Below are positions 2,658 to 17,064 of a DNA stretch of 36,367 nt, piece after piece. Within the stretch, counting starts at the first letter, position 1. The number at the start of each line of letters is the position of its first letter. A program made the position numbers and the translations under genes. The DNA lies in the IMG/VR virus record IMGVR_UViG_3300042564_001565, positions 1 through 36,367 of that record; one strand, given 5' to 3'. The stretch is from a virus. The notes beneath the pieces are model-generated. The model saw nothing but the letters and a program-made list of their open reading frames with translations, ran no database searches and was not told the DNA's origin.

Positions 2658-2731
2658 GATACAGACTTTCCCACAAAAACGAAGCCAGCCAGCGGAATCG
2701 CCTTTCGAGGCCCGTTGATGACGGCAGGGAA

Positions 2732-2805
2732 GCCCCCGTAGCTCAGTGGTCAAGAGTGGCTGAACTTAAGCAGCCGGGTCGCAGGTTCGAATCCTGCCGG
2801 GGGTT
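2732..2805 (+). tRNA. tRNA-like gene with expanded anticodon loop; identity not assignable
   Basis: The sequence folds as a tRNA. The acceptor stem is GCCCCCG/CGGGGGT (2732-2738 with 2798-2804, first pair G-U). U8-A9 follow, then a D stem GCTC/GAGT, and a perfect T arm GCAGG-TTCGAAT-CCTGC (2781-2797). The anticodon stem GGCTG/CAGCC (2758-2762 with 2771-2775) closes an 8-nt loop, AACTTAAG, where 7 is normal. U33 is therefore ambiguous and no anticodon can be assigned safely. No CCA is encoded. The last bases overlap the stop codon of the convergent gene at 2804. It could be a decaying tRNA, a frameshift-suppressor type, or a tRNA-like processing or termination element. The T arm makes a tRNA origin nearly certain. 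Confidence 0.75.
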
Positions 2806-3103
2806 AATACAGGTTCTCGCTATAAAGGCATCCTTCATCGCCTCCGCATCGCCTCCTGATTTGTCCTTGATCGACAGCGACAATCCACGCCTCTTCACGG
2901 GTCATCCAGTCGCCGAACTGGTCGATGAAGCCTTGATCCCATTCACCAAATCCGGTCCCCAGCGCGGAGGCTTGAGCCCTCATAACCTTGTCCCAGTGCC
3001 GCGCACCACAGATGACGAGGCGCGAGTGATGATGGCGGTTAGCAGCACAAACAACACGTCGAGGCGTTTTTGAGTAATCGGGTTTCCACGGTTCTTCATT
3101 CAT
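2804..3103 (-). CDS. Conserved phage protein of unknown function (C-terminus LYSENLY)
   Basis: The 99-aa protein has the hallmarks of a family widespread in phages: 'RRVVCAANRH', 'ICGARHWDKVM', 'QGFIDQFGDWMTREEAWIVA' and the C-terminal 'LYSENLY'. I know of no established function. The conserved Cys, His and Asp residues could form a metal or nucleotide site (inference). It is the terminal gene of the minus block, and its stop codon lies within the 3' end of the tRNA-like gene on the other strand. Confidence 0.85.
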   Translation of the reverse strand: MNEEPWKPDYSKTPRRVVCAANRHHHSRLVICGARHWDKVMRAQASALGTGFGEWDQGFIDQFGDWMTREEAWIVAVDQGQIRRRCGGDEGCLYSENLY

Positions 3104-15140: not shown

Positions 15141-15170
15141 ACTTCCCGATTGACACCCCCGCCCGAGATT

Positions 15171-15527
15171 ATGAGAACCAAAACAGTCAAACGTCATTAT
15201 TGCGACCATTGCAACAAAGGCATGTTTTTCCGCCCATCGATGGAAACGCATGAAAAGCATTGCACGATGAATCCTGATAGGGTTTGCCGAATGTGCCAAT
15301 TCGTCGGCTTGGATCAAGTTCCCATGCCCGAGCTTGTTGCCGCCGCGAAACTAGCCGACCCGATGACGGGCGAGGACATAGGCAAATTACGCGAGCTTTC
15401 GAACGGATGCCCCGCTTGCATGCTTGCCGCTCTTCGTATGGCCGGGACCAGTATTGACGATTTCAATTTCAAGGAGGAATCAACGCGGCTATTTGAGGCA
15501 ATGAAGGATTTTCGAAATGGGAATTGA
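15171..15527 (+). CDS. Zinc-finger phage protein (C2H2-like plus CxxC pairs)
   Basis: The start at 15171 is preferred to 15150; it follows the recurrent TTGACAC motif at 15150. The 118-aa protein begins 'KRHYCDHCNKGMFF' with Cys11 and Cys14, then 'METHEKHC' with His27, His30 and Cys31, a C2H2-like finger. Two more pairs follow: 'CRMC' (39-42) and 'CPAC' (80-83), likely a second zinc site. The family is seen in phages, with unknown function; DNA binding is plausible. The TGA stop lies inside the -35 of the next promoter. Confidence 0.82.
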   Translation: MRTKTVKRHYCDHCNKGMFFRPSMETHEKHCTMNPDRVCRMCQFVGLDQVPMPELVAAAKLADPMTGEDIGKLRELSNGCPACMLAALRMAGTSIDDFNFKEESTRLFEAMKDFRNGN

Positions 15528-15551
15528 CACCCCCGCCCGATTTGCTAGTTT
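15524..15551 (+). promoter_or_regulatory. Sigma70-like promoter before the structured leader
   Basis: TTGACA (15524-15529), 16-nt spacer, TAGTTT (15546-15551). The 18-nt word ATTGACACCCCCGCCCGA is shared exactly with the site at 15149. Transcription would start near 15558 and run through the structured leader into the HNH gene. Confidence 0.78.
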
Positions 15552-15577
15552 GCGGCGTCGCCTTTGGTGGCCGTCCG

Positions 15578-15688
15578 ATGAGAGCCGGAATGAAAGCAAT
15601 CCCCACAATGCGCCCCGTCGCTTCAGCATGCCGCCCCCTTGGGGTGGGTTCTCCATGCCGAGGCCTCGGGGCGATCCTTTTACGGTAA
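15578..15688 (+). CDS. 36-codon ORF (RPLG-type peptide) overlapping a structured leader
   Basis: An ATG at 15578 (second ATG at 15590) opens 36 codons; its TAA directly abuts the HNH start at 15689. The peptide includes 'MRPVASACRPLGVGSPCRGLGA', with a repeated Cys-Arg-(Pro)-Leu-Gly / Cys-Arg-Gly-Leu-Gly pattern. The same DNA folds strongly at 15611-15673, so the open frame may be real, may be a leader peptide, or may follow from constrained RNA sequence. No known domain applies. Confidence 0.45.
   Translation: MRAGMKAIPTMRPVASACRPLGVGSPCRGLGAILLR
15611..15673 (+). ncRNA. Predicted structured RNA leader upstream of an HNH gene
   Basis: Three nested helices are visible: CGCCCCG/CGGGGCG (15611-15617 with 15667-15673), GCATG/CATGC (15626-15630 with 15654-15658) and CCGCCC/GGGUGG, including one G-U pair (15631-15636 with 15642-15647). 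The 12-nt palindrome CCGAGGCCTCGG (15658-15669) sits on the 3' side and could pair in an alternative fold or a dimer. It follows a good promoter. The structure is read by eye; its function is unknown. Confidence 0.55.
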
Positions 15689-16195
15689 ATGAGAACTTAC
15701 TCCCAAAAACTACTCGATCCCCGCTGGCAACGCAAACGGCTTGAAATCATGGAGCGTGATGGCTGGAAATGCCGTCATTGCTTGAATGACAAGAAAACTC
15801 TTCACGTTCACCATCGTGAATACATAAAGAACAGGGAACCATGGGATTATCCAGATGAGAATTTCAAAACGCTGTGTGAGTCCTGCCACGAATTTGAGCA
15901 TGGAGAAAAACGTGATGATGAAGTAATGAAAATTCTTTCAGACGCAATAAGATCGGACGCTTCCACACAAAAATTTGTGGTCCAGCTTGCATGGTTAGCG
16001 GTGATGTATAAGCTTTTGATGTATCATCATAATAATTGGGAAACCCCCAAGGGCGAGGAATGTTTTAAGAAATACCTAAGTTTGATGGAGAAATCAAAGC
16101 GTGCCAGAGAAATAGTTCGGTTGTTTTTGGATAATACTGAAGCAATCGCCAAACTTGAAATTGATCCATCGGACGATCAGGAAGTCGAAATATGA
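15689..16195 (+). CDS. HNH endonuclease
   Basis: The 168-aa protein has a compact HNH domain with structural zinc: 'SQKLLDPRWQRKRLEIMERDGWKCRHC' (Cys28, Cys31), 'TLHVHHREYIKNREPWDYPDENF' (His41-His42) and 'TLCESCHEFEH' (Cys63, Cys66). The C-terminal 90 residues are helical and not recognised. Such proteins nick or cut DNA and are often mobile or act in packaging. It lies between a structured leader and the replication initiator, far from the terminase, so a homing or regulatory role is more likely than packaging (inference). The base composition is more AT-rich than its neighbours. Confidence 0.9.
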   Translation: MRTYSQKLLDPRWQRKRLEIMERDGWKCRHCLNDKKTLHVHHREYIKNREPWDYPDENFKTLCESCHEFEHGEKRDDEVMKILSDAIRSDASTQKFVVQLAWLAVMYKLLMYHHNNWETPKGEECFKKYLSLMEKSKRAREIVRLFLDNTEAIAKLEIDPSDDQEVEI

Positions 16196-16224
16196 TTGAC
16201 TGTAACGCCTTGTAACGCTACTGT
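16196..16224 (+). promoter_or_regulatory. Promoter of the initiator gene, embedded in iterons
   Basis: TTGACT (16196-16201), 17-nt spacer, TACTGT (16219-16224), then 6 nt to the ATG at 16231, so the mRNA could be leaderless. Two GTAACGC iterons fill the spacer and a third overlaps the -10. Binding of the initiator there would block the promoter, a classical autoregulation layout (inference). Confidence 0.65.
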
Positions 16225-16229
16225 AACGC
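16202..16229 (+). repeat. Iteron array 1 (three GTAACGC copies)
   Basis: GTAACGC occurs at 16202-16208, 16212-16218 and 16223-16229, each preceded by T. The spacing is 10 and 11 bp, one helical turn, so all copies face the same side of the DNA. It lies directly upstream of the initiator-like gene. Confidence 0.8.
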
Positions 16230-16230
16230 C

Positions 16231-17064
16231 ATGTTCGTAAAGCTATTCACTCAGATACTCGACTCATCCATCGCCGATGATCGCCGCTTGCGCCATTTCT
16301 TCACCGATCTACTGCTTTGCGCGGACCCTAAAGGCTACGTAATGATGACGGAATCAGCCATCGCCCGCCGCATCGGAACCACGCTTGAGGAGGTTGAATG
16401 GGGTATTGCGGAACTGGAAAAGCCCGACCCTCGCAGTAAAACACCTGACATGGAAGGCAGGCGGATTGAGCGTCTGGAGGGCACTGGATATGGATGGCGA
16501 ATCATCAATTTTGAGGCTTACAAGTTTCTGAAAAGTGCCGACGAAATGCGCGAAAAAACCAAGGAGCGAGTTCGTAAGCATCGGGAAAACAAAGCCTTAC
16601 AAAGCAGTAACGCCGATGTAACACCTTGTAACGCTGGTAACACCACGAAGAGGAAGAGGCAGACGCAAAGGAAGAAGCAGAATGAAGAGGAAGAGAATAC
16701 CCCTAGCGGGGAGGAGGATGAAATCTTCGAAAGCTGGAACGTGATGGCTTCACAAACCGGACTCCCAAAAATCGCCAAATCCTCAACCGAACGCCGCGCC
16801 AAAGCCAAGACCCGACTCCGCGATCAATTCTTCCGCGACAACTGGAGGGAAGGAATCGAAGCCATCAAGGAACGCGGATTCCTACGCGGCCAGAATGACC
16901 GGGGATGGGAGGCGACAATCGACTGGTTCTTGAAGCCCGAAAGCCTCATCCGTATCGTCGAGGGGCAATACAAGGACAAGGTGCCGACACAGCAGGAACT
17001 AGCCCCCCGCTGCTTCCCCGGCGAGATGATCCCCGAAAAGAAACCACTCCCGCCCGTTTTCTGA
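16231..17064 (+). CDS. Replication initiator-like protein (O/DnaD-type)
   Basis: The 277-aa protein has a winged-helix-like N-terminal domain (about 1-110: 'LRHFFTDLLLCADPKGYVMMTESAIARRIGTTLEEVEWGIAELEKPD' and 'GYGWRIINFEAYKFL'), a charged linker (about 111-170, rich in Lys, Arg, Glu) and a C-terminal domain with 'FRDNWREGIEAIKERGFLRGQNDRGWEATIDWFLKPESLIRIVEGQY'. This order is typical of phage initiators that bind the origin and recruit the helicase loader. Four iterons lie inside its linker-coding region, as lambda's origin lies inside gene O. The start at 16231 fits the promoter 6 nt upstream. Confidence 0.83.
   Translation: MFVKLFTQILDSSIADDRRLRHFFTDLLLCADPKGYVMMTESAIARRIGTTLEEVEWGIAELEKPDPRSKTPDMEGRRIERLEGTGYGWRIINFEAYKFLKSADEMREKTKERVRKHRENKALQSSNADVTPCNAGNTTKRKRQTQRKKQNEEEENTPSGEEDEIFESWNVMASQTGLPKIAKSSTERRAKAKTRLRDQFFRDNWREGIEAIKERGFLRGQNDRGWEATIDWFLKPESLIRIVEGQYKDKVPTQQELAPRCFPGEMIPEKKPLPPVF
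16607..16643 (+). repeat. Iteron array 2 inside the initiator gene; candidate replication origin
   Basis: GTAACGC/GTAACAC occur at 16607-16613, 16618-16624, 16628-16634 and 16637-16643 (spacing 11, 10, 9 bp). The words match array 1, 380 bp upstream. They encode a low-complexity Ser/Asn/Thr linker (SNADVTPCNAGNTTK), so the DNA rather than the protein may be under selection. A purine-rich AAGAGGAAG stretch follows at once and could be the melting region (inference). Confidence 0.78.

What the first reader, a model, noticed from the sequence alone, without database searches (positions are those of the whole stretch)
15524..15688. Structured leader and an RPLG-type 36-codon ORF before an HNH gene
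A good promoter is followed by a 63-nt nested hairpin inside a 36-codon open frame that ends exactly at the HNH start codon. The peptide has a repeated Cys-Arg/Leu-Gly pattern. The segment may be a regulatory RNA, a leader peptide that couples to HNH translation, or a mobile RNA-plus-HNH unit. Its compact structure is not explained by any gene.
Basis: partly seen in the sequence, partly recalled or inferred. Interest (0 to 1): 0.75.

Follow-up and report, generated by a model that had tools for sequence, protein, structure and literature searches.

The report
Translated hairpin leader before phage replication genes
A phage carries a short RNA leader whose very stable hairpin lies inside a tiny reading frame ending exactly where an HNH nuclease gene starts; related phages keep the hairpin through matched base changes and use the same leader in front of their DNA-replication-initiation genes with no HNH gene present, so it looks like an undescribed on/off control for phage replication operons.

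Summary
At 15611-15673 (+) lies the most stable 63-nt segment of the phage genome on either strand. It sits inside a 36-codon ORF whose stop abuts the HNH start codon, behind a -35/-10 pair shared with a relative. It is a conserved RNA: that relative (L020, terminase 72% identical) has a gapless homologue in which 6 of 24 pairs changed on both sides and one broke. The peptide is not conserved: the frame through the hairpin differs, yet both ORFs from the aligned ATG are 32 codons long and stop at the next gene. In L020 the leader directly precedes a replication initiator, so it belongs to the replication operon and HNH is a passenger. Among 153 HNH homologues, 34 (30 sequence clusters) have a strong hairpin here; 15 of 34 carry a coupled ORF (3.4 expected) and 20 of 34 a T-run (3 of 92 without hairpin). 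No Rfam match. Most likely: a leader whose translation through a terminator-like hairpin licenses HNH and replication-initiator expression. The mechanism is inferred, not shown, and the window's own U-tract is weak. The mobile RNA-plus-HNH reading is not supported.

The parts
15524..15551 (+). promoter: -35 TTGACA (15524-15529), 16-bp C-rich spacer, -10 TAGTTT (15546-15551)
   Evidence: Aligns without gaps to L020 leader A (TTGACC-CGTCCCGCCTTTAAGC-TACAAT) and leader B (TTGCCT-TGTCCCGCCTTTGAGC-TACTAT), each followed by GCGTC. Not listed by the consensus scan.
15578..15688 (+). leader ORF, 36 codons (MRAGMKAIPTMRPVASACRPLGVGSPCRGLGAILLR), TAA directly before the HNH ATG; start aligned with L020 is ATG 15590 (32 codons)
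   Evidence: L020 ORF from the aligned ATG also has 32 codons, in another frame through the hairpin
15611..15673 (+). nested hairpin: P1 15611-15617/15667-15673; P2 15620-15624/15660-15664 and 15626-15630/15654-15658; apical 15631-15637/15641-15647, loop CUU
   Evidence: -42.2 kcal/mol, rank 1 of 10,374; z -5.0; 6 pairs with both sides changed between window and L020, 1 broken
15648..15653 (+). 6-nt 3'-side bulge GUUCUC between apical stem and P2
   Evidence: the same kind of 5-9-nt 3'-side bulge recurs in other leaders (GUCUCA in L153 and L058, GGUUCA in L159, GGCUCA in L198)
15674..15681 (+). tail ATCCTTTT after P1 (weak U-tract)
   Evidence: GGGGCGATCCTTTT identical in L020; other leaders have runs of five or more T
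15689..16195 (+). HNH endonuclease gene, 168 aa, zinc and HNH residues intact
   Evidence: phrog_119 1.8e-16; invariant C28, C31, H42, C63, C66, H67; Pfam HNH below cut-off
16231..17064 (+). replication initiator (DnaD-like / O-like), next gene of the operon
   Evidence: phrog_10469 1.9e-22, phrog_345 4.6e-20
15171..15527 (+). upstream gene (Cys/His-rich protein), not part of the leader
   Evidence: 39% identical homologue in L014

Best explanation
This is the 5' leader of the phage's replication-initiation operon, with an HNH gene inserted as first gene. Shown: a promoter-like pair shared with a relative, a hairpin whose pairs are maintained by compensatory changes, and a short ORF that runs through the hairpin and stops at the start codon of the next gene. 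Inferred: the leader works as a translation-dependent switch. When ribosomes translate the short ORF they melt the hairpin, so transcription passes the terminator-like stem and ribosomes ending at the stop reinitiate at the abutting AUG; when the ORF is not translated the hairpin stands and transcription or translation stops before HNH and the initiator. The act of translation matters, not the peptide, which explains why the frame may change while ORF length and stop position are kept.
For: Hairpin outlier. Covariation with L020 and among a second set L153/L058/L020 leader A (7 of 26 pairs with both-side changes). A covariance model made from window and L020 alone finds the leader before an HNH gene in an unrelated phage (L153, E 4e-5 in 443 kb), and weaker hits at the leaders of L058, L159 and L146. 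Coupled ORF 15/34 vs 3.4 expected, in 12 of 30 sequence clusters. T-run before ATG 20/34 vs 3/92. No room for a promoter between hairpin and ATG, so the gene must be read through the hairpin. HNH is followed by an initiator-type gene, mostly with overlapping ATGA; 8 of 10 downstream genes checked are recognised by PHROGs. Unbiased scan of 18 contigs: the three best hairpin-plus-ORF leaders are L054 A, L054 B and the window.
Against: The window's U-tract is weak (ATCCTTTT). 19 of 34 hairpin leaders have no ORF ending at the next start. In L058 the ORF runs in frame into the gene instead of stopping. No Shine-Dalgarno before the window's leader ORF or before HNH. Window and L020 are only two sequences for the closest covariation test (9 of 500 shuffles as high). 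No expression data.
Confidence: 0.55

Rival explanations
1. Plain terminator or RNase processing site at the border between two operons; the overlapping ORF is chance. Some read-through feeds HNH and the initiator.
For: T-runs after the stem in 20 of 34 leaders; 19 of 34 hairpin leaders lack a coupled ORF; strong hairpins also stand before some other genes (21 of 1177 controls at z<=-4).
Against: Coupled ORFs are four times more frequent than in shuffles, and only in hairpin leaders. Stem with internal loops and a recurring 3' bulge is more elaborate than a terminator needs. The leader has its own upstream promoter in window and L020.
Confidence: 0.22
2. Translational silencer of T4 type (mobE, I-TevI): the hairpin keeps HNH untranslated on long early transcripts.
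For: Hairpins that sequester the ribosome binding site are described for phage HNH/homing nuclease genes (mobE, I-TevI; PMC3014915).
Against: The hairpin ends 15 nt before the AUG and holds neither AUG nor a Shine-Dalgarno. The same leader occurs with no HNH gene.
Confidence: 0.1
3. Separate small RNA (for example an antisense or decoy RNA) that ends at the hairpin; the gene downstream lies there by chance.
For: Own promoter plus terminator-like end would give a 100-130-nt RNA; compensatory changes.
Against: ORF coupling; short distance of 2-19 nt to the next start codon in most leaders.
Confidence: 0.08
4. DNA element: single-stranded hairpin or cruciform used in replication initiation or cut by the HNH protein.
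For: Lies just upstream of the replication-initiator gene; DNA folds too (-19.7 kcal/mol).
Against: G-U pairs make the + strand RNA better than the - strand (-42.3 vs -31.6 in L020); leader with ORF also before a gene of unknown function (L020 leader A).
Confidence: 0.05

Closest known systems
Leader-peptide control of plasmid replication initiators (R1 tap-repA with CopA; ColIb-P9 repY-repZ)
   Same: Short ORF through a structured leader, its stop at the initiator operon's first gene; translation of the leader is needed, peptide sequence unimportant (own knowledge; primary papers listed in PMC10724649).
   Different: Phage operon; HNH first gene in this phage; no antisense RNA promoter found; terminator-like 3' side; no sequence relation.
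pyrBI-type transcription attenuation (E. coli)
   Same: Leader ORF translated through an attenuator stem and ending just before the structural gene (own knowledge).
   Different: No regulator known; weak U-tract in the window; regulates phage replication genes.
Transcription attenuators of replication initiators (pT181 repC, pIP501 repR)
   Same: Terminator-like stem right before an initiator gene (own knowledge; pT181 paper listed in PMC10724649).
   Different: Those are driven by countertranscripts and need no leader ORF.
RBS-sequestering hairpins of phage homing endonuclease genes (Aeh1 mobE, T4 I-TevI)
   Same: Hairpin at the 5' end of a phage nuclease gene (PMC3014915).
   Different: Here AUG is free, a coupled ORF crosses the hairpin, and the leader exists without the nuclease.
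HEARO / IscB omega RNA
   Same: Structured RNA upstream of an HNH ORF.
   Different: No Rfam match; small HNH protein; leader is not tied to HNH.

Membership tests
Leader-ORF/attenuator control of a downstream operon (pyrBI or tap-repA type) | short ORF overlapping the hairpin and ending at the next start codon | tested here: met
   window, L020 A and B, and 15/34 hairpin HNH leaders vs 3.4 expected
Leader-ORF/attenuator control of a downstream operon (pyrBI or tap-repA type) | base-paired structure under selection | tested here: met
   6 compensatory pairs of 24 window vs L020, slid controls 0-1; second set 7 of 26
pyrBI-type transcription attenuator | U-tract directly after the stem (intrinsic terminator) | tested here: inconclusive
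   window only ATCCTTTT; 20/34 leaders of the wider set have T5 within 25 nt of ATG
pyrBI-type transcription attenuator | expression depends on translation of the leader ORF | not testable with these tools
   needs reporter mutants or ribosome profiling
Plasmid initiator control by antisense RNA (CopA, Inc, RNAIII) | antisense promoter reading into the hairpin | tested here: inconclusive
   none among consensus matches on the - strand near the leader; scan covers only one promoter type
T4-type RBS-sequestering hairpin (mobE, I-TevI) | Shine-Dalgarno or AUG paired inside the hairpin | tested here: not met
   hairpin ends 15 nt before the AUG, AUG unpaired in the minimum-energy fold
HEARO / IscB omega RNA | match to the RNA family | tested here: not met
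   no Rfam match at gathering; at E up to 5 only an unrelated snoRNA hit outside the leader
HEARO / IscB omega RNA | RNA always linked to the nuclease gene | tested here: not met
   homologous leader before a replication initiator without HNH
C4 antisense RNA (P1, P4 phages) | match to Rfam C4 | tested here: not met
   no Rfam match
HNH endonuclease | conserved zinc Cys and HNH residues | tested here: met

The most novel reading that the evidence does not exclude
A widespread, undescribed RNA device of phages: a translated hairpin leader (apical stem plus a 6-nt 3' bulge of GUCUCA type) that decides when the replication-initiation operon is expressed, evolving as a structure plus an open frame of free sequence, with HNH genes repeatedly sitting behind it as first gene of the operon.
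Probability: 0.35. Interest if true: 0.8.

Novelty: new variant of a known kind. Interest (0 to 1): 0.64.

Why it matters
Timing of phage replication is usually explained by repressors and antiterminators. A translation-gated leader on initiator operons would be a phage counterpart of plasmid copy-number leaders, would let a phage sense host translation before committing to replication, and could explain why HNH genes so often stand first in these operons. It is absent from Rfam and can be tested with simple reporters.

Tried and rejected
Rfam on the window, on the leader at low stringency and on 20 HNH loci: nothing for the leader. blastn of the leader region against GenBank phages: no match. 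Terminase scan of bacterial genomes: no relative, so the host is unknown. HNH, initiator and zinc-finger proteins are not found by sequence in 16 terminase relatives. HK639 'M3-like RNA' before its initiator region: folds no better than shuffles. Covariance model over 241 genomes of the phylum of L220: one match at E 0.006 per genome, about what chance gives. MAFFT of six leaders is not reliable, so no family-wide covariation count was made. Idea that 15524 is only a copy of the TTGACAC gene-start motif: dropped as sole reading, because the -35/-10 pair and the following GCGTC align with L020; the 17-nt identity with 15150 remains unexplained.

Full report
What is there. The window is one phage record of 36,367 bases with a 127-base repeat at its ends, lambda-type portal and gpA-type terminase. 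Between a Cys/His-rich protein gene (stop 15527) and an HNH gene (15689-16195) lie 161 bases. They hold most of a -35/-10 pair (15524-15551), a 36-codon ORF (15578-15688) whose TAA abuts the HNH ATG, and a 63-nt hairpin (15611-15673) inside that ORF. After HNH comes a replication initiator (16231-17064; phrog_10469 and phrog_345).

Is it more than chance. A scan of the genome with 63-nt segments on both strands puts the hairpin first of 10,374 segments (-42.2 against -33.8 for the next; GC-corrected z -4.6). The fold of the whole 160-nt leader is not exceptional (z -1.5). The consensus promoter scan does not list the promoter.

A homologue decides for RNA. The terminase is shared with 42 IMG/VR fragments. 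One of these phages, L020 (also seen as L050, L054, L068; identical leader), has the same leader. Both sides of P1 are identical (CAATGCGCCCC ... GGGGCGATCCTTTT) and the 63 bases of the hairpin align without a gap. Of 24 window pairs 15 are unchanged, 2 changed on one side, 6 on both sides with pairing kept, 1 is broken; sliding the partners by 1-3 columns leaves 31-50% paired and 0-1 double changes, and 9 of 500 shuffles reach the observed values. RNAalifold gives 22 pairs with 6 compensatory ones. G-U pairs make the + strand the better RNA.

The peptide is free, the open frame is not. From the aligned ATG (window 15590, L020 2702) both ORFs have exactly 32 codons and stop at the next gene (0 and 7 nt before its ATG), but relative to the gapless hairpin the frames differ by one base (read directly from the sequences). 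So low dN/dS cannot be expected. In L149 and L174, two related HNH leaders, the frame through the hairpin also differs while the end is the same (read directly).

The leader belongs to the replication operon. In L020 the leader stands directly before a replication initiator (phrog_678, 5.8e-25) followed by a DnaC-like loader, with no HNH gene between. L020 has a second leader of the same build (ORF of 31 codons, fold z -5.2) before a small gene of unknown function, and its flanks match the leader before the HNH gene of an unrelated phage, L153, and a leader in L058 that precedes a small gene and then a replication initiator (phrog_2509, 2.5e-50). In L058 the ORF runs in frame into the small gene. 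In that trio 7 of 26 pairs show double changes and the 3' bulge GUCUCA is identical in L153 and L058. A covariance model from window and L020 alone finds L153 at E 4e-5 in 443 kb, and at weaker scores (E 0.07 to 2) the leaders of L058, L159 and L146.

The same build before HNH genes elsewhere. Two scans with the HNH N-terminal alignment and the loci fetched before gave 153 distinct homologues with enough upstream DNA. z<=-4 in the 90 nt before the start: 18 of 153 HNH genes against 11 of 613 other genes of the same loci and 21 of 1177 in a wider control. Hairpin leaders (z<=-2.5): 34, in 30 sequence clusters; T5 run within 25 nt of ATG 20 of 34 against 3 of 92 without hairpin; ORF of 22-60 codons ending close to the start 15 of 34 against 3.4 in shuffles, and 5 of 92 against 4.6 in HNH genes without hairpin. 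The gene after HNH mostly overlaps it by ATGA; of ten downstream genes checked, including that of L058, eight are replication initiator or primosomal proteins by PHROGs and two have no family. HNH genes without hairpin often overlap the upstream gene instead.

Mechanism. Shown: structure, ORF position, operon context. Inferred: ribosomes translating the ORF melt the stem and reinitiate at the abutting start; without them the stem ends transcription or blocks the operon. This resembles leader-peptide control of plasmid initiators (R1, ColIb-P9) and pyrBI attenuation (own knowledge; plasmid papers listed in PMC10724649), not the RBS-hiding hairpins of mobE and I-TevI (PMC3014915). The weak points are the window's short U-tract, leaders without coupled ORF, and no expression data.

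Novelty. No Rfam family and no paper found for HNH with leader peptide and attenuation or phage initiator with leader peptide coupling (one unrelated hit); the library is limited, so this is weak evidence. I file it as a new variant of a known kind.

Noticed in passing
window 15150, 24146, 24443, 26477, 28353, 29805, 31450, 34791 (+): TTGACAC stands 19-23 nt before start codons of many genes, mostly structural, including an in-frame start (26497) inside a larger ORF, and recurs before genes of relatives whose terminases are 59-72% identical. It is the top 7-mer of 8114 for this place (51 of 77 occurrences vs 3% base; some contigs are redundant). No -10 box fits and most starts lack a Shine-Dalgarno: possibly an unknown start or promoter signal.
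   Followed up: partly
window 15150-15166 and 15524-15540: 17 identical bases TTGACACCCCCGCCCGA: one copy is the start motif of the zinc-finger gene, the other the -35 region of the leader; both following genes begin ATGAGAAC.
   Followed up: partly
window 16200-16230 and 16605-16640: Repeated TGTAACGCC-like words just before and inside the replication-initiator gene: possible origin iterons, as in lambda O.
   Followed up: no
window 4566-4504, 12344-12282, 14552-14525 (-): Three similar early promoters TTGACG-N17-TANNTN on the minus strand; one lies only a few bases before an ATG (possibly leaderless).
   Followed up: partly
window 2731-2806: tRNA-like gene with unusual 4-base anticodon call (ctta); Rfam tRNA 46 bits.
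   Followed up: no
L070 (Verrucomicrobia phage P8625) 5412, 10736, 15558: TTGACA with TATTGGATAC or a variant ending close to the ATG: possible leaderless promoters in a Verrucomicrobia phage.
   Followed up: no
L016 1501-2070 (Acinetobacter phage Abp95): Unannotated 189-aa HNH ORF overlapping the replication-initiator gene.
   Followed up: no
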